Shown here: piece by piece, positions 1 through 16,832 of the stretch
Position numbering within the stretch: position 1 is the first letter of the stretch
How the letters are laid out: every line of letters starts with the position of its first letter
Virus record (IMG/VR): IMGVR_UViG_3300034073_001649
Span: 1 to 26,292 of that record
From: a virus
DNA length: 26,292 bases
Reading direction: 5' to 3' (one strand)
Made by a program: the position numbers and the translations under genes
The notes under the pieces: generated by a model
The model's database searches: none
What the model saw: the letters and a program-made list of their open reading frames with translations, nothing else
Told to the model about the DNA's origin: nothing

Positions 1-573
1 CACTACGAGGTTGCGAAGTCCGAGGGGTGGGATTGGCCGACACACCATCCCAAGATGCCATTCATCTTCAGGTCAACAGATGTCGGGCGTCTGCACCAGA
101 ACATGCGTAACTCTCTTGACTGGCTTCCAACCGTTGAAAAAAGCGGGATGCTTTTGCACGGAACCACGGGCATCGGCAAGAGCCGTGCCGCTTGGGAATG
201 GGTCAACAGGCGTTGGCTCAAGTCTCTGGAGAAGGACATAATGATGAAGTTCTTATTCCTATCCATGTCAGACCTAGAGGAACTTCTCCAGCAGTCTTGG
301 TCGGAGAAGAAGCACTCGGAGGTGCTGAAGGAAATAATCAGCATGCCGCTTCTTGCACTTGACGACTTCGGCAAGGAGCGTCTTACTCCACGCATGGCCG
401 CAGACCTCTTTGCCATAATCGACAAGCGTTCAATCAGTGCCAAGGCCACAATCATCACCACGAACTTCAACGGCAACGGACTCATCGACAGGTTCCAGCC
501 GCAAGACAGGGAGACGGGTGTCGCCCTCGTGAGAAGACTCCGCGACTACTACACGGCCTACGGCATGAACTAA
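1..573 (+). CDS. DnaC/IstB-like AAA+ ATPase, probable helicase loader (5' partial)
   Basis: The reading frame is open from base 1 to the TAA at 571-573, so the N-terminus lies outside the window and 190 residues are visible. A Walker A motif, GTTGIGKS, is encoded at 160-183 and a Walker B motif, LLALDDFGKE, at about 349-378. These are followed by a sensor-1-like IITTN and a late RRLRD with a candidate arginine finger. This order is typical of DnaC/IstB-type AAA+ ATPases, which load the replicative helicase onto DNA. The first internal ATG (55) would remove little before the ATPase core, but the upstream codons also read as protein (for example EGWDWPTHHP), so a start to the left is likely. 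The following replication and recombination genes on the same strand support the role. A transposition-type IstB ATPase is less likely because no transposase is near. Confidence 0.85.
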   Translation, partial: HYEVAKSEGWDWPTHHPKMPFIFRSTDVGRLHQNMRNSLDWLPTVEKSGMLLHGTTGIGKSRAAWEWVNRRWLKSLEKDIMMKFLFLSMSDLEELLQQSWSEKKHSEVLKEIISMPLLALDDFGKERLTPRMAADLFAIIDKRSISAKATIITTNFNGNGLIDRFQPQDRETGVALVRRLRDYYTAYGMN

Positions 574-2238: not shown

Positions 2239-2995
2239 GTGGCGTAAGTTCGTCTTTGTGACGGATAGCCACGGCGACATCATCAATTGGGATGCCGCCA
2301 ACGAATGCGTCAATTTCATTGATGAGTTCAAGCCTGACGACATCATCTTTGGCGGGGACGGGCTGGACATTCGCTCGCTTCGTGGCAAGGCACACGCACA
2401 GGAGCAGGGCGAGTCGCTGAACGATGACATCAATGCGTTCAAGCGGTTTATGACAATGCTCTTCAAGGGCAGGAGAGCCAACAAATATTACCTGTGGGGC
2501 AACCACGAGGACAGGCTTCAATGTGCCGTTGAAACCAGCGGCTCGGCAATCGTGCGTGACTATGCACAGGGAATCATCGATGAAATAGAAACATTCCTTT
2601 ACAAACTAGGCATCAAGAAAATCGTTCCATTCAACGCAGACGAGGGTGTTCTCACCCTTGGGCCTCTCCGCTTTATTCACGGATATGTCCACAATGTGAA
2701 CGCAACCCGACAGCAAGCCCTTCACTTTGGCAAGGAAGGCGGAGCCGTCCTTATGGGTGACTCGCACAGGCTGGAGCAAGTCAATGTCGCCAAATACAAC
2801 GGCGTTGTCGGATATGCCTGTGGTTGCCTTCAGAACATCCCCAAGGCCCATTACGCCAAAAGGCGTTTGGGTCGCAGTGCTTGGGCAAACGGCTGGGCCT
2901 ATGGCTACTGGAACGAGCAGGGCGGCTGGAAGGTCTGGCTAGCCCATAGGGTCAACGGCGTTTGGTGCTACACCATCAAGTCATCAATCGACTGA
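2213..2995 (+). CDS. calcineurin-like metallophosphoesterase
   Basis: The protein has 260 residues and carries the metal-binding blocks of the calcineurin-like phosphoesterase fold in order: D18-S-H20 (VFVTDSHGD), GGD at 47-49, GNHED at 96-100, an IHG histidine at 156 and GDSHR at 182-186. The last block usually reads GHxH; here the first histidine is Asp183 while His185 is kept. These residues normally hold two metal ions and cleave phosphoesters. Phage members of this superfamily act on nucleic acids or nucleotides, but the substrate cannot be read from the sequence. It overlaps the coiled-coil gene upstream by 26 bases and shares a TGATG stop/start with the next gene. The C-terminal part is rich in Trp and Tyr (WANGWAYGYWNEQGGW), possibly a substrate- or partner-contact surface. 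Confidence 0.88.
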   Translation: MSSKPKASKWRKFVFVTDSHGDIINWDAANECVNFIDEFKPDDIIFGGDGLDIRSLRGKAHAQEQGESLNDDINAFKRFMTMLFKGRRANKYYLWGNHEDRLQCAVETSGSAIVRDYAQGIIDEIETFLYKLGIKKIVPFNADEGVLTLGPLRFIHGYVHNVNATRQQALHFGKEGGAVLMGDSHRLEQVNVAKYNGVVGYACGCLQNIPKAHYAKRRLGRSAWANGWAYGYWNEQGGWKVWLAHRVNGVWCYTIKSSID

Positions 2996-3243
2996 TGCCT
3001 AGGGGATATAAGAAACAGGGGCCACCCTACTACGGAGCCAAGGTCAAGTGCCTAGTCTGTGGAGACATCGTTCAGTCGGCAACCGTCCACGATTTCAAGA
3101 CCTGCAAGTGCTGGGTTGAGACTAGAAACAAGAAGAACCCAACAGGCATTGCGGTTGACGGAGGCTCGTCCTACTTCAAGTTTTCATATACAGACCCGTC
3201 CAAGTATGAGATAATGGATTCTGGCAACTACAAGAATGACTAA
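2995..3243 (+). CDS. small Cys-rich protein, likely zinc-binding (DUF7695-like)
   Basis: The protein has 82 residues. The start ATG 2995 shares its A with the TGA of the phosphoesterase (TGATG), so the pair is probably translationally coupled. Residues C19-x2-C22 and C37-x-C39 in KVKCLVCGD and FKTCKCW form a likely single zinc site, and AVDGGSSYFKF follows. This C..C / HDF..C.C / VDGG pattern is one I recognise from small phage proteins of unknown role (DUF7695 type). No catalytic residues are apparent. It overlaps the next gene by eight bases. Confidence 0.75.
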   Translation: MPRGYKKQGPPYYGAKVKCLVCGDIVQSATVHDFKTCKCWVETRNKKNPTGIAVDGGSSYFKFSYTDPSKYEIMDSGNYKND

Positions 3244-3496
3244 CTACGCAGACATCGAAAGGGCGTTCCTGCTTTACAAGAACAGGAAAACCCCAGAGGA
3301 ACCAGTTCCAAAGGGTTGGTTCACGGCAGAGCAAGCCGCAAAGCAAAAGAACATTTCTGTCAGGGACGCACAGCGTATGTTGAGAATACTTTATTCCGAC
3401 GGTTCCGTTCTTATGCAGAAGTTCAGAATCAAGTCTGGGCTTAGGGTTTACCCTATACCACACTACCGATTTCCAGCCAAGGGGGTGCAGCCGTGA
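3236..3496 (+). CDS. HTH-like DNA-binding protein ending in the KGVQP junction
   Basis: The protein has 86 residues from ATG 3236. The segment WFTAEQAAKQKNISVRDAQR, followed by a helix and a strand-like VLMQKFRIKSGLRVYPIPHY, reads as a helix-turn-helix with a wing, so a small winged-helix DNA-binding protein is plausible. Its last codons (AKGVQP then TGA) are the first copy of the 19-base junction repeat that links the following small genes. The TGA overlaps the GTG of the next gene. The HTH call is by pattern only. Confidence 0.7.
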   Translation: MTNYADIERAFLLYKNRKTPEEPVPKGWFTAEQAAKQKNISVRDAQRMLRILYSDGSVLMQKFRIKSGLRVYPIPHYRFPAKGVQP

Positions 3497-3536
3497 GCAA
3501 CGAGCAAGACCGCCGCACCATCTTCCGCTTGCAGGA
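3493..3536 (+). repeat. 44-base direct repeat, copy A
   Basis: It is identical to 4443-4486. It encodes the SNEQDRRTIFRLQD head of two different array genes. The perfect identity contrasts with the diverged sequence that follows. Confidence 0.9.
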
Positions 3537-3678
3537 CGATGTTAAGCGTCTCCAAGCCGAGAACGAGCGGCTCCGCAACTTGGCAAAGGACATCTACGAA
3601 AGGGGCAATGTATCTATCAACAAGGATGATTGGGAGTTTGTATTTCAGATGAACGCCGCCAAAGAGGTGCAGCCGTGA
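3493..3678 (+). CDS. small coiled-coil protein of the cassette array (1)
   Basis: The protein has 61 residues from GTG 3493, which overlaps the previous stop as GTGA. An AAGGGGG stretch lies seven bases upstream. Domain order: SNEQDRRTIFRLQDD head, a coiled coil with RLQAENERLRNLAKDI, then a short tail ending AAKEVQP. Its first 44 bases are identical to the first 44 bases of the gene at 4443, and its LQAENERL DNA matches other array members, so the gene is a mosaic of shared modules. Small phage proteins with this kind of coiled coil are common and have no assigned function. The junction at its end differs from the usual copy at two bases (AAAGAGG). Confidence 0.75.
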   Translation: MSNEQDRRTIFRLQDDVKRLQAENERLRNLAKDIYERGNVSINKDDWEFVFQMNAAKEVQP

Positions 3679-3818
3679 GCCTTTCGCTTGATTATGTCGA
3701 GCGACTGGTTAGAAATGAGAGGATAACTTTTTTCATCATTGGATTCTCAACCGCCACAATAATTATGACGCTATTGATTGTTATTGCAGAAAGAGCCGCC
3801 AAGGGGGTGCAGCCGTGA
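3675..3818 (+). CDS. small single-pass membrane protein in the cassette array (2)
   Basis: The protein has 47 residues from GTG 3675, overlapping the previous stop as GTGA. An ATG further upstream in the same frame (3630) lies inside the previous gene and is unlikely. A polar head, SLDYVERLVRNER, is followed by one hydrophobic segment, FFIIGFSTATIIMTLLIVIA, and then the shared tail AAKGVQP. Positive charges before the segment and a short tail after it suggest an N-in topology. It is the only array member with a membrane segment, so the junction has joined it to unrelated coiled-coil genes. A host-membrane effector or a small holin-like peptide are both possible. Confidence 0.68.
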   Translation: MSLSLDYVERLVRNERITFFIIGFSTATIIMTLLIVIAERAAKGVQP

Positions 3819-4204
3819 GGCAGCCTACCCGATACGATGTCGGAATGAAGGAGGAAAGGTGCGATAAGACAGGATTTTACGCATCCTTTCCGTGGGTCTA
3901 TCCATCCGATGATGGAAAGTATGTCTTGCACGCCGACTACGCCGCCCTCCAAGCCGAGAACGAGCGGCTGAACGAGCGTGTTAGGATAAAGTTTGAAAAG
4001 ATTGAAGACCCGATGGATGAATACCTCAACCAAGTGCTAAGGAAGAACTGTGCAAAGTTGGAAGCCGAGAACGAGCGGCTCCGCAAGGCGGGGGATGCTC
4101 TGGTTTTTGCAAATGAAGGTTTCATCTACGGGCATCCATACACCACAAAACAAGTTCTTGCGGCAATTTATGAATGGTCCGCCGCCAAGGGGGTGCAGCC
4201 GTGA
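3815..4204 (+). CDS. coiled-coil protein of the cassette array (3)
   Basis: The protein has 129 residues from GTG 3815 and is the longest array member. The head, MRQPTRYDVGMKEERCDK, is followed by DDGKYVLHADYAALQAENER, a long coiled coil, a second LEAENERLRKAGDAL, a C-terminal YTTKQVLAAIYEW and the tail SAAKGVQP. Forty bases (3930-3969) are identical to 4286-4325 in the next gene. The second coiled-coil block resembles the one in the gene at 4443, including the GCGGGGGATGC stretch. The two internal copies of AENERL suggest lengthening by recombination between repeats. The function is unknown. Confidence 0.75.
   Translation: MRQPTRYDVGMKEERCDKTGFYASFPWVYPSDDGKYVLHADYAALQAENERLNERVRIKFEKIEDPMDEYLNQVLRKNCAKLEAENERLRKAGDALVFANEGFIYGHPYTTKQVLAAIYEWSAAKGVQP
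3930..3969 (+). repeat. 40-base direct repeat, copy A
   Basis: It is identical to 4286-4325 and encodes ADYAALQAENERL in gene 3815-4204. The sequences on both sides of the two copies differ. Confidence 0.9.
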
Positions 4205-4446
4205 GCCAGCCCAAGCGATACGCATTGCGACTGCCAGACATCTCCTACGGAACCGAGGAAAGTCCGAATGGCGAGTATGTCCGCTACGCCGACTACGCCG
4301 CCCTCCAAGCCGAGAACGAGCGGCTCCATGCAGACAACAATGTTCTGCTGAACCCTGAAAAGTTTCCTCACAGGTTCGCAGAGACTTGTTTCATTGCTGG
4401 ATACAAGCAGGGCATCAATGATGCTTTAAAGAAAGAGCAGTCGTGA
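4201..4446 (+). CDS. coiled-coil protein of the cassette array (4)
   Basis: The protein has 81 residues from GTG 4201 (GTGA overlap with the previous stop, AAGGGGG upstream). The head SQPKRYALRLPDISYG is followed by NGEYVRYADYAALQAENERL and a C-terminal part, FPHRFAETCFIAGYKQGIND, which differs from its neighbours. The middle block is a near-copy of the one in gene 3815. The end, KKEQS, is encoded by a degenerate junction (4428-4446) that keeps only GCAG.CGTGA, so it does not carry the KGVQP tail. The function is unknown. Confidence 0.75.
   Translation: MSQPKRYALRLPDISYGTEESPNGEYVRYADYAALQAENERLHADNNVLLNPEKFPHRFAETCFIAGYKQGINDALKKEQS
4286..4325 (+). repeat. 40-base direct repeat, copy B
   Basis: It is identical to 3930-3969 and encodes ADYAALQAENERL in gene 4201-4446. 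Confidence 0.9.
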
Positions 4447-4486
4447 GCAACGAGCAAGACCGCCGCACCATCTTCCGCTTGCAGGA
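4443..4486 (+). repeat. 44-base direct repeat, copy B
   Basis: It is identical to 3493-3536, about 950 bases away, in the same orientation. The following bases differ at once (GATGAA here, GACGAT in copy A). Confidence 0.9.
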
Positions 4487-4760
4487 TGAACTGCGGCTGG
4501 CGAAGGAGGCCAACGCCGCCCTCCAAGTCGAGAACGAGCGGCTTGATAAATCAAACACATCGCTTCTCGGAACAATAGACATTATTGACGACAAGTATGG
4601 TGAACTCCAAGCCGAGGTCGAGCGGCTCCGCAACGCGGGGGATGCGATGGAAAATGAGTTGTTCCGTGTTATTCTTATGGAACTTCCAGGACTTGAAAAA
4701 GAGGACATCAACAACCAATACATCGCCGATTGGCGAGCCGCCAAGGGGGTGCAGCCGTGA
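4443..4760 (+). CDS. coiled-coil protein of the cassette array (5)
   Basis: The protein has 105 residues from GTG 4443 (GTGA overlap). It repeats the SNEQDRRTIFRLQDE head of gene 3493 with 44 identical bases. It then has AALQVENERLDKS, YGELQAEVERLRNAGDAM and a distinct acidic C-terminal stretch, VILMELPGLEKEDINNQY, before the tail RAAKGVQP. Three coiled-coil blocks of slightly different sequence make this the most diverged array member. The start is preceded by the degenerate junction, with AAAGAAAG instead of AAGGGGG. Confidence 0.75.
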   Translation: MSNEQDRRTIFRLQDELRLAKEANAALQVENERLDKSNTSLLGTIDIIDDKYGELQAEVERLRNAGDAMENELFRVILMELPGLEKEDINNQYIADWRAAKGVQP

Positions 4761-4885
4761 GCCGTAAAAAGAAGCCAGCAAGAAAGAAGCCAATCATAAC
4801 AAGTGCTTTGCCGACTTATTGGGAACTTGTGGCTTTCGCAGAAACGAGGAAGCCAAAAAAGAAAGCCAAGGGGGTGCAGCCGTGA
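4757..4885 (+). CDS. very basic 42-residue protein in the cassette array (6)
   Basis: The frame starts at GTG 4757 (GTGA overlap, AAGGGGG upstream) and ends at TGA 4883-4885. It has two lysine/arginine clusters, SRKKKPARKKP and RKPKKKAK, around a short hydrophobic centre, ALPTYWELVAFAE, and ends KGVQP. The charge suggests binding to nucleic acid or to an acidic partner. The perfect junctions on both sides argue that it is a real cassette rather than a chance frame. There is no recognisable family. Confidence 0.6.
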   Translation: MSRKKKPARKKPIITSALPTYWELVAFAETRKPKKKAKGVQP

Positions 4886-5079
4886 TTCACGAGTTCCGCA
4901 ACCCAATGCCTGTTGAGACTCCGCTGGGTTACGGTATGCTAATCTATGTTAGAGATGGCGGCACATTCGCAAACGATGTGTTTGCTGTTGTCCTAGAGGA
5001 TGGCGGACTCAGGCATTTCTCCTCCGAGCAAATCAAGTTCCTTCAGAACAGCACTTTTGACATTCGCAACAATGGCTAA
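4882..5079 (+). CDS. small beta-rich phage protein, last member of the array
   Basis: The protein has 65 residues from GTG 4882 (GTGA overlap, AAGGGGG upstream). The sequence MIHEFRNPMPVETPLG, then GMLIYVRDGGTFANDVF, VVLEDGGLRHFSSEQIKF, resembles a widespread small phage protein with a compact beta-barrel-like pattern and no known role. It has no coiled coil and no KGVQP tail, so the junction series ends here. It overlaps the next gene by eight bases. Confidence 0.72.
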   Translation: MIHEFRNPMPVETPLGYGMLIYVRDGGTFANDVFAVVLEDGGLRHFSSEQIKFLQNSTFDIRNNG

Positions 5080-5410: not shown

Positions 5411-5780
5411 AATAGGTTTGGTAAACCTTGACCCAAGCAAAGGCGAGGGCGTTCAGGATGATGAACCCAACGGTTCCGCCAGCAACCCAAGGGAACCATT
5501 CGGACTCGAAAACCCAGACGGTAGCCATACCTATGAAACCGCCAAGCATGAACACAATCCCAGCAAAACGCTTGGACGGGAGGAATGCGGCTATTGCCAG
5601 ACCAATGCAGAGAAGGGCAAAACTTCCTGTGGAGTACATCCAGAGTGTGTCGTTCTTGATATCGGCTACACGCTGAATTTCTATGACTTCAGACGGAGGG
5701 AGTAGTTCCTGAGGCATTGGCGGCGGTGTGCTTTTGCAAGCGGCAAGGGCCAAGGCCACCAATATAAGTACAGCATTCAT
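5346..5780 (-). CDS. lipobox membrane protein, probable lysis (spanin-like) protein
   Basis: The protein has 144 residues. It starts MNAVLILVALALAAC, a very short hydrophobic lead ending in a lipobox-like LAAC (Cys15), followed by a Pro-rich stretch (KSTPPPMPQELLPP). Three further hydrophobic segments follow at about 47-68, 72-93 and 97-120, with a charged tail of about 25 residues. A lipid-anchored N-terminus plus membrane segments next to a holin-like gene suggests a role in outer-membrane disruption, as for unimolecular spanins. However, three segments are more than usual, and the lead lacks the positive charge normal for a lipoprotein signal. The start overlaps the holin stop by four bases (ATGA). 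The end overlaps the plus-strand gene 5072-5410 by 65 bases. Confidence 0.65.
   Translation of the reverse strand: MNAVLILVALALAACKSTPPPMPQELLPPSEVIEIQRVADIKNDTLWMYSTGSFALLCIGLAIAAFLPSKRFAGIVFMLGGFIGMATVWVFESEWFPWVAGGTVGFIILNALAFAWVKVYQTYFSPSRQEESPKCKEDDSLPKS
5414..5428. other. short palindrome just after the convergent stop
   Basis: AGGTTT and AAACCT flank a three-base loop, four bases after the TGA of gene 5072-5410 and inside the opposing lipobox gene. The stem is only six pairs and no T-run follows on either strand. It could be a weak terminator, or chance. Confidence 0.25.
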
Positions 5781-6091
5781 TTTTGTTCTCTGATGTATTT
5801 GCGAATCTTTAAGTCAAGCAGTTCGAAGAACCTAGGTGCCAAGGCACCAGATGACGAAAGGATGACAGATTTGTAAAGCGGGTCTATGCTAGAGCCGTGA
5901 AGACTGAAGTAAACAAGCACTCCCACAAGACCTCCAGCGAGGCCGTGCTTCACCCAACAAACCCACTTGTGGCGTTCCTCCGAAAGCAGAAGCCTGACGG
6001 CGGCACCAGCGACACCAAGCAGGGACACGAGCCACCCGCCACGCTTGAAGTCAGCGGCGGCTTGCACGAAGTCTGGGTCGGGAGAGGCCAT
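5777..6091 (-). CDS. holin-like small membrane protein (LydA-type candidate)
   Basis: The protein has 104 residues from ATG 6091, one base after the stop of the giant gene. A longer frame begins at 6226 but lies inside the giant gene and is Arg-rich nonsense in composition. Hydrophobic segments lie at about 19-36 (GWLVSLLGVAGAAVRLLL), 48-66 and 72-88, with a basic tail, KIRKYIREQK. The AVRLLLSEE turn between the first two resembles the LydA-type phage holin family. Holins form the membrane lesion that lets lysis proceed on time. Placement at the end of the late operon beside a lipobox protein supports this. No endolysin is seen in the window. Confidence 0.7.
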   Translation of the reverse strand: MASPDPDFVQAAADFKRGGWLVSLLGVAGAAVRLLLSEERHKWVCWVKHGLAGGLVGVLVYFSLHGSSIDPLYKSVILSSSGALAPRFFELLDLKIRKYIREQK

Positions 6092-6092
6092 G

Positions 6093-9000
6093 TCATTTCT
6101 TCTTCTTGGCGTCTGCATCCGCCTTCTTCTTTGCGGTTTCCTCGTCGTCGTAGATTCCGATGATAACCCTGTAAGGATTATACAGCCTGAACTTGTTCTT
6201 TGAGTATGCGATGATGTATCCGTCAAGCCTAGTCAGAACGGAACTGTTTCCAACCGAGACCTTCTTCCAAGGTGCTGATGAGGTTGTTGGCTTTTGGTTC
6301 ACACTGAACATCGGCACATTGTTCGAGCCAACGCCTTCTTGTTCTGGCTCTGGTTCAAATCTTGGCTTCCGAAGTTGGCTTATGTCTATTGGCGAACCAA
6401 AGGATTTCTGGTTGTCATTGTATGATGCAATGGACGGGTTCATTTCCATCCTCATTTGCATTTCACGCCTTGCCACAGACGCCAGAGGCGAGTCGGCGTT
6501 TTGGATAATCACACCCTGTGCCTCCCCAGCCTCATCAACATAAACCTTCATTATGACTGGCCTTCCGTCTTCAGTCAGGCTTTCGTGGCCCGACTTCGGG
6601 TAAACCTTCATTGTGTAAAGGCCAGCCTCAAGTCCGCTGTGCTCGCTGTCGAAGGAAAGCCAAGCCTTGCCAGAGAAGGCGGATTTGTTTCCTGCATGCA
6701 TGAACTCTGAGTTCCAAGCCTTGCCCCCGTATTCAACCGACTCGTACTGAACGCCGTTGTTCAACTTAAAGAACTGCATGCTCTTGCCAACGGCAGTGTC
6801 CTTTAGTTTGCTTAGGCTATCTCCCTCTGGAAGAACAAACCTAGTGCCACGAATTCTGATGAATTCATTAGAATCAAAGGCATCCTGTTGAGTCCCGCTT
6901 GCCAGTTCGACATATTCTTTTGCTGCCTCTAGTGCGTCAAATCCAGAGACTAGGTATTCGGCAAAGCCCACAACATCAGGATAAGATGAGGAATAAACCT
7001 CTTTTGTTACCTTGCTGTTAAGCCACTTGATAAGCGTTGGTTTAGCCTGAATCCTAGATGTTGTGTGAGTTTGGTATTCGGCCCCAGAAAGGAAAAGTGC
7101 AAATCTTTTTGCGGCCCTAGTCCAACGCTCCTCGATTCCACCAAGCAAGCGTTTTGCGGCTTCTGGCGTGATGGCGTTGGCAAACATACGCATACCGACA
7201 ATTTGCTCGGCACTTTTCCTTATGTTTTCACCAAGCAATCCAAGGTCTATGTCCTTCACATAATATTGCCTGTCGTGCCAAGGTGCCAATGTCTTGAGGT
7301 CAACATTTGAACCAGCCTTGTTCATGAAGTTTATCAGGTCAAAGCCAGTATCAGCGTCCGAGACGATTTTGATAGGAGAATTATCCGAATCCACGCTAAC
7401 GCCGAGGCTTTCTTTTGTGTACTTCATTAGCAAATCGTAAAACCCAGTGCTAAGAATTGGGCCTCCGTCTGGAGATTTCATCATGATTTTCTTCCAGATA
7501 CTGCCGTACACTTTCTCGGCCTCCTTCATTCTTTCGACAGCCAAAGCCTGTTCTTGCGTAAACACTGGCGTGTCTCCTTTGTAAACCTGTGTGACCCCAA
7601 GTGGCTTGTAGGCGGAAGCAAATGTCTTCGGCAATATTTCGTTGTAAATAATGGCGGCTTTCCTTGCACTCAACCCGCTTCCAGTACCGCTATCAAGGCC
7701 ATTGGGGATAACGATTTCCTTGGCACCTTTGATTAGTGCGTCCCTTAGAAGAACTCTTGCAAGAAGAAGACCCCACTCGTTCGTGTTGGCAAAAGGAAGG
7801 TTTGCCATTCTATGCAAGTCCTCGATTTCGTTTGGGTCCAAAGACATTTCCCTCATCTTGCTCTCAGTGTCGCTAGAAATCTTGAACGCATCCTTGACGA
7901 TGGTCATGGCGATACTTCTTGCTGCTGTCTCTTGTTTAACTGACCCCTGAACAGCACCATCAATGTACCCCTCTGTTTTTCTTCTGAAATGGCCCCTTTC
8001 ATCATTTTGAAGTCTTTGGTAAGCCTTGTAAACATCAGAGTCGTTTCCATCAGGACGCCTAGTGGCCTCAGATAGTTTCATTTCAAAAGCAGCATTTGAT
8101 GCGGAAGGAGACCTCTTTGAAACCAACAGAAGGGAGGTGGCATATTCACTGTCAAACGCTGTCAGTTCCCTGAACAAATTAACAACTGCGTTGTCAAGAA
8201 CATCTCCTCTGTAAACAATGTTATTTCCGCCAACCCTGTCGCTAAACGCCTGTGCGTAGTTTGGATAAACGCCCTTCTTGTACAGTGCTGATGGCGATGT
8301 GTGTGCCTGAGTCGAGAAACCCTCAATCGCCGCCTTCATGCTGCTGTAAAGCCTTGCCAGCGGGAATTGGCTTTTACCGTAGTCTGGGCCTCTGCTGTGT
8401 CCCTGAAACCTTTGCAACAATGCACCTGATATGCTTCCGCCGTTTTGGTAATGCTCTATCATACTTAGGGACGATTGCAGTGAGCCGTAGTCTTGCCTCA
8501 GGAACATATTCATCTCAGACCACTCACCAATTACGAACGGCTTGCCAATGCTTTCGGCTGTCCTTGCAACACCGACTTGAGCAGCCAAATCCTGCGGACT
8601 ATGTGTAAGGTTTCTTTGGTTCTTGTCTAGGGTGTGACGCAGTTGAGATGGAAGCCCGTTCCTCCAGTACATTTTCTTTTCAGAGGAAGAAAGACCGTTG
8701 TAAAATTCATACCTGACATTTCTTCTGTCAACGTGGACATCGGTAATTGTTTTGAACAGGCTTTTCTTTTTTGCTGGGTCGATTGAAGCAGCCTTGCTCA
8801 GTTGGTTTTCCCAGAAGGGTGAAATCTTGCCGCTTTTGAGTGCATCAAGTGCAGACAAGCCGTGCTTTGTTGTCATTCTTTTCCAGACCAAATCAACCAC
8901 ATCCCCTATTATTCCATCAACGATATGGTCTCCAAACTGCATCCGCCCGAAACTGACGCCCTCAGCGTTTCTGTTAACAAGAGGTGACGACCTAATCATC

Positions 9001-12000
9001 ATCTTTGGATACGTGAGCCTGACGATGTATTCCACGTCTGATTTGCTAATCTTATCGTTGCCGAGGGAAAGGGATTCAATAGACCTAGCCAAAGGCGAGT
9101 AATCATACGCCTTGTTGCCAACAGAAAACGAGGATGCGTTATCTAGGTATTTTATCACCTCGGCAACCTCAACCTCGCGACACTCATCCTTAAGCCACTG
9201 TTCGAAAATTTCAACTGGCTTATCTCCGAGACCCTCGCAAAAGTCGCCTATATCAAAGGAGTTCTCAGGATTAACATTTTCAATTATTTGTTGTGTAACC
9301 AGTTGCTCGTATCTTTTTACAAGCCTGTCGAAAGAACGTGCACCGTCCTTAATCCCGAAGGCAGAAATGGCCTTCATCAAACCTAGATGCTCTTTTCTGC
9401 CTGACTGAAAAATTGTGTCAACGGCATCAGACAGAACGTTGGAGTCAGTAGTTGAGACGTCCATCAAGTTAGAAACATTCGGGTCAAACCTCTTAAGCAC
9501 CGAAGTCAAAAGCAAAGACCTAGTGCTGTCGCTAAGTTTATGTTTTTTAAGAGGCCCAGTTCCACCCTTCAGTGCGTAGCCAAGTGCAATTTGTGCATCA
9601 TTGGCAAGATTGTCGTAATCGGTTTCGGAGACATTGAAATCGTCAACTAGCCAATAAAGAGCCTCCCCGTAGTTTGAGGCTGCGTACTCCGTTTCGGCAA
9701 GAAGCCTTTCATAACCAACACGAAGCGGCCTTGTCACACCCTCTGCGGCCTTGATTAATGGCATTGCATTGAGCCTGTTTGTCACCGCGTACTCGTAAAG
9801 ACCTCCAAGCATTCTTGGGGTGTCCTCCCTTTTGAATGAGGCTAACGCTGACATCTCTGGGTCAAAACCGCTGTCCCTGTGATAAGACCATTCTCTAAGC
9901 ATCCATTCATTAAGTCTGGTGAGTGACGATTCAATGGAAGGTTCTAAGGTTGAGGTTGTTTTTTCAGAAATAAGTTTTGATACAAAAGGAAGAATCTCCT
10001 TGCTTAATTTATCTATTTTTTCCTCAGACCTAGATTCAATGACCTGCTCTGCGTTTTGGGCGTTTACCTTGTTGTTGTTTGATTGCAACTCCTCTGCGTA
10101 AACAAACGAAATTCCCTTCATGGTGTCCCTGTATGTGAACCTTGCGTGTGCGTAAGTGGAGACATCGATTTTTTTATTTGAATCCAAGACGTGATTTGAA
10201 CGGTCAACGGAGGGATGATATCTTGGATTCGTAGAATGCACCGTAAGGTTTCCGTAGGATTTGTATTTCTTGTCTAGAGTGAATTTCTTTCCACCCTCTG
10301 AAACATCGAATATGCTATCCCTTCTTGCCGTGACCCCCATTGCGTAAGTCTTGACGAACTCCATAAGTTCAACCGCGTTTAACTTCGGGTCTTTGCCGTT
10401 CACCTTTGGCTTCTTGGCCTGTTCCTGAAGGTATCTGTTGAGTCCAGTGATTTTCGCTTCCTCCAAGACCTTGACGCCCCTGTTGTGTGTGTTCTGAAGT
10501 TCCTTGAGGAAGTTCTTCGCGGATATGCCATTTGGGAACCTTGAAATGATTTCAGCCGTAACGTCTGCAAGGTTCGCCTTGAAGGTGTCAACATAGGCTA
10601 GGCTCTTAAAGGCGGTCTGTGCTGACTTTTCCGCGTCGTTCACGAGCGTCTTGAAATTGTCGTCAAAATACGGGCCTCTGCTGTCAATCGGACCCCAAGG
10701 ATAAACCGATTCGTCTAATGCGTTGATTATAGGCACATCGGCATAATAATCCTTGTACAGTCTCAATAACGCATCTCCAGCCTCTTCCAGTCTGTTTGAG
10801 CGATAAAGTTCATAGGCTTCCTCAACTTTTGAAAGTGTTGCCAAAGACCTGAGTCTAAACTCGTAAGCCTCGCGGACATGGGCGGCTGGATAAGCATCGG
10901 TGTCAGTGGAAAGTCCAGCGTCAATGATATCCCTCTTATAAACAGCCTCCTCTGCTTTTATAATCAAACTTGCAACGTCATTTTGCCAATTCGAGGAATA
11001 TGACTCATATGTTTTTGAATCAGTAAGCGAATCAACAGCATTTCTGGCATTCCTGCTAATGGCTGTGAGTTCATTGCTTCTGTCCCTAGACAACGAAAGC
11101 ATGCTTTCCGCCTTTTCGTTGAAGTCCTTGAATTTTTGCAAGAACTCAGGGTCGCTTGAAGCCCTCTGCTGCAGTTCGGCGTTGTGCTGGTCTCCGTCCC
11201 ATCCGAACTTAATCTTCCAATTTTGACCAGTTATGCCTCTTATGAATTCCCTGAACTCTATTGCTTCCTTGGTCCAAGCCAGCGTAACAAATGGCTTGGC
11301 GTCGCCGTAGTCACGGTCAAACGAAGGACTTCTTTCGACAACGACAGCCGTAAGCATGCCTCCGCTGAGTTTCTCCCAGTTTTCCGCCACCTTGGTTATG
11401 TTGTTTATGTCGTAATATTTTTCCCAAGTAATCTGCTTTCCAAGCAATGAGGAATACCTTCTTACCGCTTCCGCATCCCATTTCGCATTAGGCTTATCGC
11501 CTCTCAGAAGGGTCACGTGTTCCTCTGAAATCATTTCCATTTCACGCTTGTAACCATTATAATTAAAAACGTCGTCGAGTTTTCTTGTTAAATAAAGGTC
11601 GTATGGGTCCAGAGAGTCTGGTCTTGAAATTATTTGCTCACCGTTGATTGTCGATGTTTGGCTAAGAACCCAGTGCATTATTCCATCGGTGCTAGTTAGG
11701 GATGTGTCTGACTGTGCGTGTCTATAATTGCCGTAATTTCTCGTGATATAATATCGTCCTTCTTTCTTCAGGTCTTCCATGAAGTTGAGAACATGGTCAG
11801 CAATCTTCGACTCGATAACCCCGACTGAAAGATTCACAAAAGCATCGATGTTCGACTTAATCAACTCGCTTTGTTCCTGTGAAAACTTGGCGTTCCACTC
11901 CTCCTCTGATAGTTTAGGATTTTCATCCACAACCTTCTGCGAAGCCTCCTTCTGCTTCAGGAAAAGAAGAACCATGTCCTGAAGGCTGACCTTATGTGGG

Positions 12001-15000
12001 TCTATGCTTGCTCCGACTGGCCTGAACAGCGGCCCTTGCAGGAAGAAATCCGTTGGGTTCGGGGCTAGCGATATGACGGTTTGTGCCACTCTCCGCTTAA
12101 CGAAATCATCCTCGCTTACATTGGATATGCTGTACCTACGAAGTTCCGAAAGCCTTGCCAAGCCTTCCTCGCCCTGAGTTTCCCTTAGGTCTCTTGGCTT
12201 TGAGTACCTGCTGGCTTCGGTGGAAATGTCTCCAACCTTTCTTGGGATTCTTGTTGAGGCGTAATCGGCGGCTTTCTGCATGGTTATGTCCACGCCGTCG
12301 GAATTGCCACCCCTGTTCAGCAGAAGCGGACGGACATCCAAGTATTCGCCGTTCTTGATTTCAAAGTTTGAGTCCAGTGCAAGAAGCGATGAATCGGCAA
12401 AAGCCTTGCCGTCTTGAATCGAGTCAAAGAACGCTGGGTCAAGCGGAACAAGTTCGACGCCCTTGACGCCATCCATGTCAACCATGTCCTTCAGGAACCA
12501 TTTCGCACCAGACTTTATAGCCATCTCCATGTGGGCCATCTGTGACTTCCTGAAAAAGTTCTCGTCACCAAACATTCTAGATGCCTCATCTGGAGTTGGT
12601 GCTCTGTAATAATAAACTGGAGCGTCGCCGCCAAGCCCAGCAATCCACCTGCTCATGGCTGGCATTCCAGACGGAAGCCTGATGTCAGAGCGTCTTGCCA
12701 CTCTGCCTGAGTTGACTTGAAATGAAAGGGAGTCCGCTATCTCGCAATATGGGCCAAGCGACGACGGTCTTTTCAGCCCCTCCTTGTTTCTGGATGGCGT
12801 GAACCTTTGGTTTTTTCTGTAAAATTCCCTGTGTGTTGTCAAAGACCCAAGCGAAAATCTTGTGTCAACGGCTGGCGTGGTGGCAAGATATGCAAGCAAT
12901 CCAACTTTCTTTCCGACAAGGATACCGTTTTGGCTTGGCAGTTCGCCGCCGCCAAGTGCCGAGATAACTGAACGAAGGAACTGCTTGCTTGCGGAGGCGT
13001 CCTTTGCCGCAACTTTTTCCTCCATGTTAAGCGAGAACTTCGGCCTTCCGCTTTGGTCAACAGGAGCAACATCGCTGCTATAAGCGAGCAAATCCCTATG
13101 AAGGATTTCATCGTAAGCCCACACGGGGATTTCGGCGTCTGCTCCGATGGCCTCCCTGATTGCAGAGGTCTGGTTCCAAGGAACCCCAGAGTCCATCTCC
13201 TGAATTATTCTTCTCCTAAGTTCAGATGCATCAACGTTTGTGAGCGAGAAGTTCGCCATCTTTGTGACGGCGTTGAATCCCTCCTTTTGAATGTCTGGGT
13301 AAACGGAAGCCCTTTTCGTGAAGTTGTCGTCAAGTGCGGCCTCGACCTCCGCAACGGTCTTGTACGAGCCAATCTTTTCGCCGTTTTCATCGAACACGAT
13401 GTTTACCCCTTTTCTTGAGACAACCTTGTGGCCCATCTTCCCCTTGTAAACATCTCCAGCCTCTGATGAGGTCTTCTCAAAGTTGCTTAGGCTGAAGTTT
13501 CTTGCGATGTCCCAGAAGGCGTTTTCGTGATTGTATTTGTAATTTGTGCCGTCGGTCTGAATGTTCAGCATCCTTCCGATGCTAAAGTCGGTGATTGACG
13601 AAAGCATGCCTCTTGGAATTTCGTCCATCGGCCTGTTTGCGTAGGGAAGGTCTTGGCTCTTTGCGAAACCAGCAATCTGATGCATGACGTCCCTCTTGAA
13701 CGAGCCGTGCTCCTGCCATATCGACTGGGAGCCAAGTTGACGCTCAGGAACGCTGTGGTCGAGCGACATGTACGGCAGGTAGTTCTCGAAGAAATCCCTA
13801 GCAAGTGCCTCAGTGCTGTGCCAGATGGCACGAACCTCTGGACGCAGGAACATCTCGGCCACACGCCTTTCGACAACCTTGAGGTCGATTGAGCGAACAT
13901 TGAACTTGTGCGTCCCGTCCTCGCCAACGGCGAAGTCAAGCCCAGCGAGAAGGAACCTTCTGTTCTTAATGGCAACTTTGTTGCCCCTGACACGCGGAGG
14001 ATTCGGACCGATGTCTGTTTCCATCGAGGCACCGAAGTAAGTTGTCTCAAATACGTTCGGCATCCCGTTCTGCCAGTTGTCTCTGGCCCTTTGAAGAAGT
14101 TTTATCTTCTCGGCCATGCCGCCAGACATCAACCCAGCCTGAACCAGCGTATCCAGTTCGAAGTCGCTGAACCTGCCTCTGTGAACTCCATCTGGACCCT
14201 TGACGGACGTTTTTCTAGAAGGGTCGATTGCGTCCAGAACCTTCGCCATCTCCCTGCCGCGTCCAGCCATCTCGACGGCGATTTCCTTGGCCTTCTTGAT
14301 TCTGACCTTCTTTGTCTTTGGGTCGAAGCCGATTAGTTCATCCGAACCGTTCCTAGTCAGGTCGTCAATGAAGGACTTGGATGCGTTGGATATGTCGATA
14401 AACCCGTTGTTCTTGAGGCTGTGCGAGGCACGAACAAGGTCTTCCAAAAGGTAGTCGAGTGCACCGACACGCACCCTCTTGCCGTCCTTCATGAACACGG
14501 ATTCAATCTCAATACCCTTCCTGAGTTTGTGGAAGTCGAACATCGTGCCATGCCTTGTGACTCTGGATTCCCAGTGGTCGGCCCAAGCGGAACCAGCGAT
14601 ATCCATCGCCGCCTTTAGACCCTCAAGTTTGCCGCCGAGGAGCCAATACTCCATTGGCTTGTCGTTCGCCCAAAGGCTGTAATAGTAAGAACCGAACTCC
14701 TCCGATATGTAGGAGATAAGGTCGTCCTGAGTCTTCGTCAGTTTGGTTGGCTTCCCAACGTCTAGGTCGTCGCCGTAAGAACGCACCGCCTCGATAAGTT
14801 CAGCCTTTGTTCTGTTGATTGTCGCCCTGTCGTTCGCATTGTCTGGGTCAACAAGCGAAAGATAGTTCCTGATTACGAGGTCGTTCTGGAGCGATGAATA
14901 GTTCTTGGCCCAGTCAACCAGTTCATTGGTGGGAACAAGTCCCCTCTGGACAAGGATACCGTTTTGGTCCCTGACACCGAAGGTCGTCTCCCTGAAAAGG

Positions 15001-16832
15001 CGTCCGTAGTGCTGGCCGAGAACCGTGTCCCTCATGAGGACGTGATGGAACTCGTGTGCCATGGTCAACCCCTTGAACTTCTTGCTTGGGTTGAAAAGGT
15101 TGTCCAGATTCAGGCCGATTTCCACGGTTCCGTCTGTAAGCCTTTTGATTGTGTAGGCATCCGTTGCCTCAAATGAGGCTACGTCTGGTCGTGCTGGGTC
15201 GCGTTTTGAGAAGTTTGCGTAACCTGAGTCGGCACCGTAGAAAGCCTTCATGTCGTACGCTGGAATGACCGACTCCGCCATGACAAATGTCCTGCCCATC
15301 TGGAGCCTAGACATTGTATCGCCATTAGGATGCGAAAAAACCATCGACCAGTTGTGTGCTAGGTTCGGCTTGGATTTCCTCAGGTTCTCAAGCCCGAATT
15401 GCATCTGAATCTGTTCTCTCCATCTCCTTGAGGCACCGCTGGCGTCCAATATGGTTCTGGCAGTCAGCGAACCAGCGGCACCCAAGATTCCGCCAACGCC
15501 GATGCCAGCACCAAGCCCGTCCATCTTTGCGTTAGCGTAACCCATGCCTCCAGATATGATGGCACCGCCAATCGCACCAGTCACCACGTCGTACGAGTAG
15601 GAAAGCACTGGCTCAACGGTATCAAGTGCACGAAGGAAGATTTTTGTCTTGTCGGAAAGACGCCCGTTTGTCTTCTTCAGGGCTTCCTCGGTTTCCATCA
15701 AAGCCTGTCTAGCGTAGCCAAAGACACCCTTGTAACCCTTCTTGTTGACAATCTGCTCACCAGTCAGCCTGAGTGCGGTTCCGACAGACTCAAGTATTGA
15801 GCCTCCGACGGAAGCAGCCGCAATCGGGCCAGCATACGGGATGCTAATGCCAGCGACGTGTGCAGAGGCGGTTCCGATTCCAGCGACACGGGCGAACTTG
15901 GTCGCATCCTCTGCGGCGATACCAGTTCCTATTTCAACAAGACCAGCGGCTTTTCGTACGCCCATGTCGATTGTGTTGCTGACCGCCCCGCCGATTGCCT
16001 CAAGCGGAACGCCAGCACCCCACTTCAAGGTTCCCCCAAGCACACCAGAGTAAATGGTCTGTGCCTTCATCTGTGCCCTTGAAAGCATGTCGCCAGTGTT
16101 CAGAATCTTTCCAGTTCCACGCATGAGCGTGGCGGCGGCTGGGCCTAGGAACGGAGGGTCCGCGACCCAAGTCACGACCTGAGTGACCTCTGGGGAGATG
16201 AAGTCCTTGCTCATGACAAGCGTTTCCTCGCCCCTGTAAAGCCTGTTGGATTTTGCGTTCGTTTTCCTAGCCTCCACATAGCCGTTATAACGCTCGGCTG
16301 GAGTGCCCCTGTTTCGAATCACATTGTTGAGTTTAAATACGATTGAATCTGGAGTCTCGGAGTCAACCGCCATAAGGACGAACTCTCTCGTCGCTTGCCA
16401 AAAGCCCTCTGTGATTGACGCAGGAAGTTTGGCAAGAGAGCCAAGCGGGTCTTTCGCAAGTGCCGTACCGCCCTGTGCAACCGATTCCTTAAAGGCATCT
16501 ATGCCTTCGCCCAACGACTTCCAAAATTCGCCCTCCTGCTCGTTCTTCCAAGGCTCCCAGACAAGGTACTGGTCATATGACATTATGAAGTTCTCGTCCT
16601 CCCTCGCCCTAGCGTCCAGTTCCTGAGGGGTTGGCGGGGCGGTTAGTTTAGCGAGAACCTCTTCTCTTTGTTCTGGAGGAGTTTTAGCCAGAATAGCGTC
16701 GAATTCTGGGTTCCCAGTAGAACCTACTACTGGTTTGTTATCCTCACCAATGATTACGCCTTTTGGAGTTTTTGGCGAAAACTCCTGAGGAAGCGTTACT
16801 GAGTACAGGTCATTGTCGTCTGGCACTTCCAT
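6093..16832 (-). CDS. giant (3579-residue) virion protein, probable DNA-ejection/internal protein with zincin motif
   Basis: One unbroken 10.7-kb frame. The start ATG 16832 is two bases after the previous stop. Residues ~215-360 and ~412-460 hold Gly/Ala-rich hydrophobic segments with GxxxG spacing, as expected for proteins that enter a membrane during DNA ejection. HEFHH at 593-597 (TMAHEFHHVLM) is a zinc-metallopeptidase motif, and EE at 711-712 (YISEEFGSYY) could supply the third ligand. The middle is long, polar and helical without a motif I recognise. Residues ~3000-3090 (NLPFANTNEW, LLRDALIKGAKEIVIP, IYNEILPK) resemble a module of phage polyvalent proteins. The C-terminus is a small strand-rich unit followed by a lysine tail. 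Size and place after two internal-protein candidates match the T7 gp16 position, but no lytic transglycosylase motif and no N4-type RNA polymerase motif was found. Confidence 0.75.
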   Translation of the reverse strand: MEVPDDNDLYSVTLPQEFSPKTPKGVIIGEDNKPVVGSTGNPEFDAILAKTPPEQREEVLAKLTAPPTPQELDARAREDENFIMSYDQYLVWEPWKNEQEGEFWKSLGEGIDAFKESVAQGGTALAKDPLGSLAKLPASITEGFWQATREFVLMAVDSETPDSIVFKLNNVIRNRGTPAERYNGYVEARKTNAKSNRLYRGEETLVMSKDFISPEVTQVVTWVADPPFLGPAAATLMRGTGKILNTGDMLSRAQMKAQTIYSGVLGGTLKWGAGVPLEAIGGAVSNTIDMGVRKAAGLVEIGTGIAAEDATKFARVAGIGTASAHVAGISIPYAGPIAAASVGGSILESVGTALRLTGEQIVNKKGYKGVFGYARQALMETEEALKKTNGRLSDKTKIFLRALDTVEPVLSYSYDVVTGAIGGAIISGGMGYANAKMDGLGAGIGVGGILGAAGSLTARTILDASGASRRWREQIQMQFGLENLRKSKPNLAHNWSMVFSHPNGDTMSRLQMGRTFVMAESVIPAYDMKAFYGADSGYANFSKRDPARPDVASFEATDAYTIKRLTDGTVEIGLNLDNLFNPSKKFKGLTMAHEFHHVLMRDTVLGQHYGRLFRETTFGVRDQNGILVQRGLVPTNELVDWAKNYSSLQNDLVIRNYLSLVDPDNANDRATINRTKAELIEAVRSYGDDLDVGKPTKLTKTQDDLISYISEEFGSYYYSLWANDKPMEYWLLGGKLEGLKAAMDIAGSAWADHWESRVTRHGTMFDFHKLRKGIEIESVFMKDGKRVRVGALDYLLEDLVRASHSLKNNGFIDISNASKSFIDDLTRNGSDELIGFDPKTKKVRIKKAKEIAVEMAGRGREMAKVLDAIDPSRKTSVKGPDGVHRGRFSDFELDTLVQAGLMSGGMAEKIKLLQRARDNWQNGMPNVFETTYFGASMETDIGPNPPRVRGNKVAIKNRRFLLAGLDFAVGEDGTHKFNVRSIDLKVVERRVAEMFLRPEVRAIWHSTEALARDFFENYLPYMSLDHSVPERQLGSQSIWQEHGSFKRDVMHQIAGFAKSQDLPYANRPMDEIPRGMLSSITDFSIGRMLNIQTDGTNYKYNHENAFWDIARNFSLSNFEKTSSEAGDVYKGKMGHKVVSRKGVNIVFDENGEKIGSYKTVAEVEAALDDNFTKRASVYPDIQKEGFNAVTKMANFSLTNVDASELRRRIIQEMDSGVPWNQTSAIREAIGADAEIPVWAYDEILHRDLLAYSSDVAPVDQSGRPKFSLNMEEKVAAKDASASKQFLRSVISALGGGELPSQNGILVGKKVGLLAYLATTPAVDTRFSLGSLTTHREFYRKNQRFTPSRNKEGLKRPSSLGPYCEIADSLSFQVNSGRVARRSDIRLPSGMPAMSRWIAGLGGDAPVYYYRAPTPDEASRMFGDENFFRKSQMAHMEMAIKSGAKWFLKDMVDMDGVKGVELVPLDPAFFDSIQDGKAFADSSLLALDSNFEIKNGEYLDVRPLLLNRGGNSDGVDITMQKAADYASTRIPRKVGDISTEASRYSKPRDLRETQGEEGLARLSELRRYSISNVSEDDFVKRRVAQTVISLAPNPTDFFLQGPLFRPVGASIDPHKVSLQDMVLLFLKQKEASQKVVDENPKLSEEEWNAKFSQEQSELIKSNIDAFVNLSVGVIESKIADHVLNFMEDLKKEGRYYITRNYGNYRHAQSDTSLTSTDGIMHWVLSQTSTINGEQIISRPDSLDPYDLYLTRKLDDVFNYNGYKREMEMISEEHVTLLRGDKPNAKWDAEAVRRYSSLLGKQITWEKYYDINNITKVAENWEKLSGGMLTAVVVERSPSFDRDYGDAKPFVTLAWTKEAIEFREFIRGITGQNWKIKFGWDGDQHNAELQQRASSDPEFLQKFKDFNEKAESMLSLSRDRSNELTAISRNARNAVDSLTDSKTYESYSSNWQNDVASLIIKAEEAVYKRDIIDAGLSTDTDAYPAAHVREAYEFRLRSLATLSKVEEAYELYRSNRLEEAGDALLRLYKDYYADVPIINALDESVYPWGPIDSRGPYFDDNFKTLVNDAEKSAQTAFKSLAYVDTFKANLADVTAEIISRFPNGISAKNFLKELQNTHNRGVKVLEEAKITGLNRYLQEQAKKPKVNGKDPKLNAVELMEFVKTYAMGVTARRDSIFDVSEGGKKFTLDKKYKSYGNLTVHSTNPRYHPSVDRSNHVLDSNKKIDVSTYAHARFTYRDTMKGISFVYAEELQSNNNKVNAQNAEQVIESRSEEKIDKLSKEILPFVSKLISEKTTSTLEPSIESSLTRLNEWMLREWSYHRDSGFDPEMSALASFKREDTPRMLGGLYEYAVTNRLNAMPLIKAAEGVTRPLRVGYERLLAETEYAASNYGEALYWLVDDFNVSETDYDNLANDAQIALGYALKGGTGPLKKHKLSDSTRSLLLTSVLKRFDPNVSNLMDVSTTDSNVLSDAVDTIFQSGRKEHLGLMKAISAFGIKDGARSFDRLVKRYEQLVTQQIIENVNPENSFDIGDFCEGLGDKPVEIFEQWLKDECREVEVAEVIKYLDNASSFSVGNKAYDYSPLARSIESLSLGNDKISKSDVEYIVRLTYPKMMIRSSPLVNRNAEGVSFGRMQFGDHIVDGIIGDVVDLVWKRMTTKHGLSALDALKSGKISPFWENQLSKAASIDPAKKKSLFKTITDVHVDRRNVRYEFYNGLSSSEKKMYWRNGLPSQLRHTLDKNQRNLTHSPQDLAAQVGVARTAESIGKPFVIGEWSEMNMFLRQDYGSLQSSLSMIEHYQNGGSISGALLQRFQGHSRGPDYGKSQFPLARLYSSMKAAIEGFSTQAHTSPSALYKKGVYPNYAQAFSDRVGGNNIVYRGDVLDNAVVNLFRELTAFDSEYATSLLLVSKRSPSASNAAFEMKLSEATRRPDGNDSDVYKAYQRLQNDERGHFRRKTEGYIDGAVQGSVKQETAARSIAMTIVKDAFKISSDTESKMREMSLDPNEIEDLHRMANLPFANTNEWGLLLARVLLRDALIKGAKEIVIPNGLDSGTGSGLSARKAAIIYNEILPKTFASAYKPLGVTQVYKGDTPVFTQEQALAVERMKEAEKVYGSIWKKIMMKSPDGGPILSTGFYDLLMKYTKESLGVSVDSDNSPIKIVSDADTGFDLINFMNKAGSNVDLKTLAPWHDRQYYVKDIDLGLLGENIRKSAEQIVGMRMFANAITPEAAKRLLGGIEERWTRAAKRFALFLSGAEYQTHTTSRIQAKPTLIKWLNSKVTKEVYSSSYPDVVGFAEYLVSGFDALEAAKEYVELASGTQQDAFDSNEFIRIRGTRFVLPEGDSLSKLKDTAVGKSMQFFKLNNGVQYESVEYGGKAWNSEFMHAGNKSAFSGKAWLSFDSEHSGLEAGLYTMKVYPKSGHESLTEDGRPVIMKVYVDEAGEAQGVIIQNADSPLASVARREMQMRMEMNPSIASYNDNQKSFGSPIDISQLRKPRFEPEPEQEGVGSNNVPMFSVNQKPTTSSAPWKKVSVGNSSVLTRLDGYIIAYSKNKFRLYNPYRVIIGIYDDEETAKKKADADAKKKK

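What the first reader, a model, noticed from the sequence alone, without database searches (positions are those of the whole stretch)
7600..7840. Polyvalent-protein-like module near the C-terminus of the giant protein
Residues ~3000-3090 (NLPFANTNEW, LLRDALIKGAKEIVIP, AIIYNEILPK, then a short strand) match the order of a module I know from phage polyvalent proteins, which join many activities in one chain and travel with the DNA. This would place the giant protein between the ejection and polyvalent protein classes.
Basis: inference. Interest (0 to 1): 0.5.

Follow-up and report, generated by a model that had tools for sequence, protein, structure and literature searches.

The report
Split acetyltransferase-like domain in phage giant
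A stretch near the end of a giant phage protein is one half of a domain, built like acetyl-transferring enzymes, that also sits in the multi-function giant proteins that phages are thought to inject into bacteria, and here the domain is cut in two by about 750 extra residues.

Summary
Residues 3005-3100 of the 3579-aa protein are the C-terminal half of a domain family without a curated profile in Pfam or NCBIfam, yet encoded in 299 IMG/VR stretches. Five of five scanned family giants carry Pfam domains of polyvalent proteins. The N-terminal half lies at 2193-2257, after the family's helical unit (2069-2160). A 747-residue insert separates the halves; 129 relatives have linkers of at most 137. 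Profiles built without the window hit both halves in order; 0 of 3000 shuffles score as high. A second contig, L137, has the same split: halves 72% and 78% identical, insert 47%. The family's predicted structure (pLDDT 88) resembles GNAT acyltransferases, at middling Z. Against: the window's own low-confidence model docks the halves but retrieves no GNAT, and two arginines invariant in 61 phage relatives are lost. Packaging, ejection and acyl transfer are inferred. The protein is polyvalent-like; full membership is not shown, since no second enzymatic domain was proven. New variant of a known kind.

The parts
6093..16832 (-). Giant protein, 3579 aa (P0001)
   Evidence: Open frame; no family in Pfam, PHROGs or NCBIfam.
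10353..10628 (-). Helical unit that precedes the domain in the family (W-S-G-L type), residues 2069-2160
   Evidence: Profile of 118 upstream segments: best domain 16.3 bits, E 5.4e-7 for one protein; 0 of 3000 shuffles; 3 of 432 decoys higher, which look like real members.
10062..10256 (-). N-terminal half of the GNAT-like domain, residues 2193-2257 (YAHARF..YAEELQS = family LAHVRF..fvEEiQSD)
   Evidence: N-half profile 7.6 bits, 0 of 3000 shuffles, 0 of 432 decoys; hhalign E 3.5e-6, probability 87.6; 72% identical in L137. A 38-column version is weaker: 7.1 bits, 2 of 3000 and 1 of 432.
7821..10061 (-). 747-residue insert between the halves, residues 2258-3004, mostly helical in a low-confidence model
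   Evidence: Linker 11-137 residues in 129 relatives; 47% identical in L137; model.
7533..7820 (-). C-terminal half of the domain, residues 3005-3100: the reported segment
   Evidence: residues 3005-3080 are 78% identical in L137.
15042..15056 (-). HEFHH zincin-like motif, residues 593-597
   Evidence: Motif only; 0.05 expected by chance; DUF5700 below its cut-off.

Best explanation
The segment is the C-terminal half of a GNAT-fold (acyl-CoA N-acyltransferase-like) domain that recurs in phage polyvalent giants; in this phage lineage a 747-residue module sits in the chain between the fourth strand and the third helix of that fold. Shown by computation: homology of both halves to the family, their order, the helical unit in front, and the same split in a second contig. 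Predicted: the GNAT fold of the family. Inferred: the halves pack into one domain; the protein, encoded after a run of tail and virion-type genes, is carried in the virion and enters the host with the DNA; there the domain transfers, or once transferred, an acyl group to a host macromolecule as one tool among several in the chain. My odds: homology and split anatomy 0.93; GNAT fold of the family 0.8; acyltransferase activity in this protein 0.35.
For: Both halves in order by independent profiles, with 0 of 3000 shuffles and 0 of 432 decoys as good. MAFFT aligned both halves around a gap of about 750 residues without being told to. The helical unit lies in its family position. Spacing of 18 residues from the strand-5 glycine to the helix-4 tyrosine in the window and in L137, as I counted it also in L032 and L124. 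Same split in L137, with the halves better kept than the insert. Family model pLDDT 88.1, pTM 0.81; the 50 VIA-align rows (Z 6.9-8.6) are GNAT-fold proteins by title or, for the toxin and ICL2 rows, by my recall. 17 of 25 tabulated conserved columns keep the commonest residue, among them E2247, E2248, Q2250, S2251, P3013, F3014, W3020 and Y3063. Polyvalent company in 5 of 5 giants scanned. Neighbouring genes on the same strand match head-closure, tail and virion proteins.
Against: The plain family profile is not significant (E 1.6). Core profiles of the AWTTG type or the IPKG type alone are near chance (44 and 43 of 1000 shuffles; 16 and 29 of 433 decoys) and the mixed core gives 5 of 1000 and 3 of 433. 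Pairwise, L032 beats 2000 of 2000 shuffles, but L028 loses to 33 and L056 to 5 of 2000. The window lacks R125 and R149, both invariant in 61 of 61 aligned phage relatives (R125 is also absent from the solo relatives). The strict pattern [RQ]xxGx[GA] of GNAT CoA loops is absent from residues 2193-3115 and found between strand 4 and helix 3 in only 14 of 61 relatives. Foldseek finds no PDB match at E <= 0.001 for the family model, and the tool notes that a best Z of 7 to 8 is common. The window model is poor (pLDDT 49, pTM 0.33); its best structural matches are threonyl-tRNA synthetase editing domains (Z 8.5) and none of the 50 rows is a GNAT. No packaging, ejection or activity data exist here.
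Confidence: 0.6

Rival explanations
1. Same split domain, but a catalytically dead GNAT-fold scaffold: it frames the 747-residue insert, or helps packaging, and transfers nothing.
For: R149 and Y150 are replaced by G and S, R125 by V; no strict CoA-loop pattern in the window; the insert lies in the chain where GNATs normally bind CoA (topology; the role of that loop is recalled).
Against: The two strand-4 glutamates and the helix-4 tyrosine are kept, and in L137 the halves are 72% and 78% identical against 47% for the insert, which suggests a constrained surface; most family members also lack the strict CoA-loop pattern (47 of 61).
Confidence: 0.33
2. The two matches are remnants of two different copies of the domain, not one split copy.
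For: Some relatives carry two full copies in one protein (L002, L024, L075).
Against: Neither half has a partner beside it: the next N-half and C-half candidates anywhere in the protein score 0.0 and -1.1 bits; the halves complement each other exactly and L137 shows the same pair; the low-confidence model puts them in one unit (matches span model residues 79-946).
Confidence: 0.06
3. The resemblance is chance, or the insert is an assembly artefact.
For: The plain profile gave E 1.6; third-position GC is lower in the insert (0.48) than in residues 1-2068 (0.58).
Against: 0 of 3000 shuffles for independent profiles; one open frame of 3579 codons; codon usage of the insert is ordinary for this gene (divergence 0.025; median of equal windows 0.026) and GC3 stays low after it (0.51-0.53); L137, another IMG/VR record, has the same arrangement at 55% identity.
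Confidence: 0.03

Closest known systems
Phage polyvalent proteins (Iyer et al. 2017, PMC5512222: abstract, outline and sections 6, 8, 11, 29 read)
   Same: Giant chain in a phage; carries a domain that in its relatives sits beside LPD22, LPD38, InPase, MuF_C and RadC; a zincin-like HEXXH motif, zincin-like peptidases being the commonest domain in that class according to the paper.
   Different: No Pfam polyvalent domain in the window protein; joining of disparate activities not shown. The paper reports two RimI-like GNAT families and 40 LPDs; whether this family is one of them could not be checked.
GNAT acyltransferases (ICL2 C-terminal domain, KacT, AtaT, human GCN5)
   Same: Fold of the family model: VIA-align Z 8.6, 8.1, 8.1 and 7.8 with rmsd 2.9-3.5 over 109-122 residues.
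   Different: The family has long inserts after strand 4 and after strand 5, and 47 of 61 members lack the strict CoA-loop pattern; the window has a 747-residue insert and its own model does not retrieve GNATs.
Solo 549-aa type proteins in Gammaproteobacteria MAGs (8 loci: L123-L129, L131)
   Same: Short-loop form; the alignment that shows both halves of the window was made mainly with these.
   Different: Small proteins in bacterial contigs; both halves adjacent; they keep the R-Y that the window lost.
Pelagibacter phage HTVC028P gp34 (L004) and relatives L085-L099
   Same: Variant with an IPKG strand instead of AWTTG, nearest in wording to the window's IVIPNG; encoded between internal-protein genes in HTVC028P.
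   Different: Long loop kept; halves 100 residues apart or less in most; a core profile of this type alone scores the window at chance level (43 of 1000 shuffles).

Membership tests
EEiQSD/AWTTG domain family (unnamed, defined here) | Both halves present in order | tested here: met
   one place each.
EEiQSD/AWTTG domain family (unnamed, defined here) | Residues invariant in 61 of 61 aligned phage members (E83, Q85, S86, P113, F114, R125, R149, Y238) | tested here: inconclusive
   Window keeps 6 of 8 (not R125, R149); R125 is also absent from the solo relatives.
EEiQSD/AWTTG domain family (unnamed, defined here) | Helical W-S-G-L unit in front | tested here: met
   Residues 2069-2160, E 5.4e-7.
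GNAT superfamily | GNAT fold, in the family | tested here: met
   Model pLDDT 88.1; 50 of 50 listed VIA rows GNAT-type by title or recall, Z 6.9-8.6, a range the tool calls middling; Foldseek alone not significant.
GNAT superfamily | GNAT fold, in the window protein itself | tested here: inconclusive
   Low-confidence model; halves matched as one alpha/beta unit, best rows threonyl-tRNA synthetase editing domains, no GNAT listed.
GNAT superfamily | CoA-binding R/Q-x-x-G-x-G/A loop (recalled) | tested here: not met
   Absent from residues 2193-3115; present between strand 4 and helix 3 in 14 of 61 family members. So the window protein is not filed as a GNAT enzyme; only GNAT-like.
Polyvalent proteins (Iyer et al. 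2017) | Two or more domains with disparate activities in one chain | tested here: inconclusive
   One GNAT-like unit by profile; a HEFHH motif only for a second; no Pfam domain.
Polyvalent proteins (Iyer et al. 2017) | Phage-encoded, in a virion-gene context | tested here: met
   Same strand as genes matching head-closure, tail and virion proteins.
Polyvalent proteins (Iyer et al. 2017) | Delivered into the host with the DNA | not testable with these tools
   Needs virion proteomics or delivery assays.

The most novel reading that the evidence does not exclude
A split, switchable acyltransferase: the 747-residue module sits at the place in the chain where GNATs bind CoA, so the enzyme is open and inactive while the giant is threaded through the tail, and forms only when the two halves meet after refolding in the host, tying activity to delivery of the whole chain.
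Probability: 0.12. Interest if true: 0.75.

Novelty: new variant of a known kind. Interest (0 to 1): 0.5.

Why it matters
The window adds an extreme form: one domain interrupted by more than five times the longest linker in 129 relatives. It ties an otherwise unannotated 3579-aa phage protein to the polyvalent class, and the small solo relatives give a handle for testing what these domains do.

Tried and rejected
Curated libraries with the protein, the segment and its neighbours gave no family (neighbours of the giant did match). Megablast and tblastn of the giant (in two pieces) and of the segment in phage records: no match. IMG/VR scans with the whole protein, the segment, P0002 and the N-half region confirmed no relative; the head-closure gene found L100 and L101 and the insert found L137.

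Alternative pairing of the helix-4 motif with GFYD at residue 3130 (suggested by the alignment): rejected, since the tyrosine is not kept in L137 and the helix is shorter. Alignment of the stretch around HFRRKTEG..VQGSVKQE to the N-half: rejected, since the N-half profile has its only place at 2226-2252.

Results that weaken the C-half taken alone: given in full under evidence against. In one search the decoy list still held one real member (L037), which was dropped before the counts (432 left of 433); of 1000 shuffles only 347 produced a reported score. The loop columns left out were chosen after seeing the window, so one search is the cleaner test. The ORFs of L100-L104, which include the giant of phage C75C1 in two pieces, gave no module match. 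Tiles of the window protein against all held ORFs gave two matches at E 0.015 and none for shuffled tiles. A search for membrane segments found none in the giant and one borderline stretch in P0002, so I dropped a membrane-channel idea. N4-type virion polymerase was not tested beyond the family scans and a PDB sequence search (best E 0.17, unrelated).

Papers: a search for six motif strings returned 16 papers, 15 listed, with hits to AWTTG only and on unrelated subjects by title (listing). A search joining polyvalent protein, GNAT, phage and virion terms returned 7 (listing). So I saw no description of this family in those two searches; Iyer et al. may hold it among LPDs that are not in Pfam, which I could not check.

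Full report
What is there. The window is one whole virus record of 26,292 bases. The giant gene lies on the minus strand, 6093-16832, 3579 codons. Upstream on the same strand come a 1190-aa gene, smaller genes, a gene with weak tail-fibre matches and one matching virion, tail and head-closure families. Downstream, overlapping in another frame, an ORF has a LydA-type holin match below Pfam's cut-off (E 2.6e-4). The finding's 7600-7840 is residues 2998-3078 and the quoted strings are present.

Is the resemblance real? No curated library names the protein, so I built the family. A consensus written from memory matched 3 phage records and 299 of 308 candidate stretches in IMG/VR, of which 80 loci were kept. 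A second type, with IPKG in place of AWTTG, came from a pelagiphage protein (15 of 20 stretches). Bacterial genome contigs gave 32 of 54 stretches. A plain profile ranked the window protein first among the window's ORFs, at this segment, but without significance (E 1.6). A longer profile showed why: the protein matches in two places, in the right order, YAHARFTYRDTMKGISFVYAEELQSNN at 2227-2253 and a stretch ending at 3045 that includes the reported segment. With loops left out, the two-half profile scores 20.3 bits, E 2e-8 for one protein, 0 of 3000 shuffles and 0 of 432 decoy ORFs as good; the N-half alone 0 of 3000 and 0 of 432 (a 38-column version 2 of 3000 and 1 of 432); the C-half alone 3 of 3000 and 0 of 432. 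A profile of ten short-loop relatives made without the window agrees (E 1.2e-5, 0 of 3000, 0 of 432). MAFFT aligned both halves unprompted around a gap of about 750 residues. The helical unit that precedes the domain in relatives lies just before the N-half in the window too, residues 2069-2160 (best domain E 5.4e-7; 0 of 3000 shuffles; the 3 of 432 decoys that score higher look like real members).

A second witness. Searching with the insert found contig L137, whose protein is 55% identical to residues 2193-3566. The N-half is 72% identical, the insert 47%, residues 3005-3080 78%, the next 35 residues 51%, the rest of the C-terminus 66%; the best-kept 70 residues of all lie near residue 3510, and the C-half ranks 56th of 1327 such stretches. 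So the split is inherited, and the halves are kept better than what lies between them. Profile-profile comparison of the window/L137 pair with the family gives E 3.5e-6 (N-half, probability 87.6) and 5e-5 (C-half, 67.5), and 4.2e-5 over 83 columns against the short-loop relatives. In 129 relatives the linker between the halves runs from 11 to 137 residues, median 65; here it is about 750.

What the domain is. AlphaFold2 on a family member with 61 sequences gives pLDDT 88.1 and pTM 0.81. VIA-align lists 50 structures at Z 6.9-8.6; by title, or by my recall for the toxin and ICL2 rows, they are GNAT-fold proteins. The tool notes that a best Z of 7 to 8 is common, but also that rank 50 then usually falls to 4 to 5; here it is 6.9. 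Foldseek alone has no PDB match at E <= 0.001, and its first row is unrelated, though many of the next are acetyltransferases or ICL2. Of 22 BFVD matches at E <= 0.001, three are named for polyvalent domains and most are unnamed. Five family giants of 98 module ORFs were scanned with Pfam and all five carry polyvalent-type domains. The 61 aligned members share no Pfam family: at E <= 1 the most widely matched one reached 3 of 61, and a few single members matched other families at best 5e-4.

What does not fit. Two residues invariant in 61 of 61 aligned phage relatives, R125 and R149, are V and G in the window, and Y150 is S; in all, 17 of 25 tabulated columns keep the commonest residue. The strict CoA-loop pattern is absent from residues 2193-3115 and present in 14 of 61 relatives. 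The window model (981 residues, 11 sequences) has mean pLDDT 49; its blocks above 75 lie at the two halves, which are also almost the only parts with aligned relatives, with lesser islands elsewhere. Its structure matches span both halves as one alpha/beta unit, but the best are threonyl-tRNA synthetase editing domains (Z 8.5) and no GNAT is listed; Foldseek finds nothing significant for it. So the packing of the halves is hinted at, and a GNAT fold for the window copy rests on homology.

How it probably works. By gene position and by the company its relatives keep, the protein is most likely carried in the virion and ejected, and the domain most likely acts, or once acted, as an acyltransferase on a host molecule. 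Homology and anatomy are shown; the fold is predicted; packaging, ejection and chemistry are inferred. A dead scaffold that frames the insert is the main rival.

Relation to what is known. Iyer et al. (PMC5512222; abstract, outline and sections 6, 8, 11 and 29 read) describe polyvalent proteins as chains that join domains of disparate activity and report two GNAT families among them; whether this family is one of those, or one of the LPDs not in Pfam, could not be checked. The window protein shares a domain with that class, and a zincin-like HEFHH motif (0.05 expected) points the same way, but full membership is not shown.

Noticed in passing
window 3479-4890, + strand: The same 18-base string AAGGGGGTGCAGCCGTGA occurs five times; at four of them it ends a small ORF with ..KGVQP* and overlaps a possible GTG start of the next, so ribosome-site and stop-start overlap seem to be copied as a cassette. 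L137 has an ORF with the same ..AAKGVQP end.
   Followed up: partly
L123-L129, L131: Eight bacterial contigs (MAGs named as Gammaproteobacteria or Chromatiales) encode 549-aa type proteins with the short-loop form of the domain, outside any giant; in L124 the neighbours look chromosomal.
   Followed up: partly
L002, L024, L075: Two full copies of the domain in one giant protein.
   Followed up: no
window 10353-10628 and family loci: The helical W-S-G-L unit in front of the domain is itself a recurrent unit (118 segments) and gave only a chance-level Pfam match in the window.
   Followed up: partly
window 5777-6226, - strand: LydA-type holin match below Pfam's cut-off (E 2.6e-4) in an ORF overlapping the 3' end of the giant gene in another frame.
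   Followed up: no
window 55-573, 763-1578, 2213-2995, 2962-3243, + strand: DnaC-like helicase loader, Erf-type annealing protein, metallophosphoesterase and a DUF7695 protein.
   Followed up: no
L024 residues 672-754 of the giant: A second, ordinary Pfam GNAT match (Acetyltransf_1, E 6.7e-4, just under its cut-off) in a giant that also carries two copies of the new domain.
   Followed up: no
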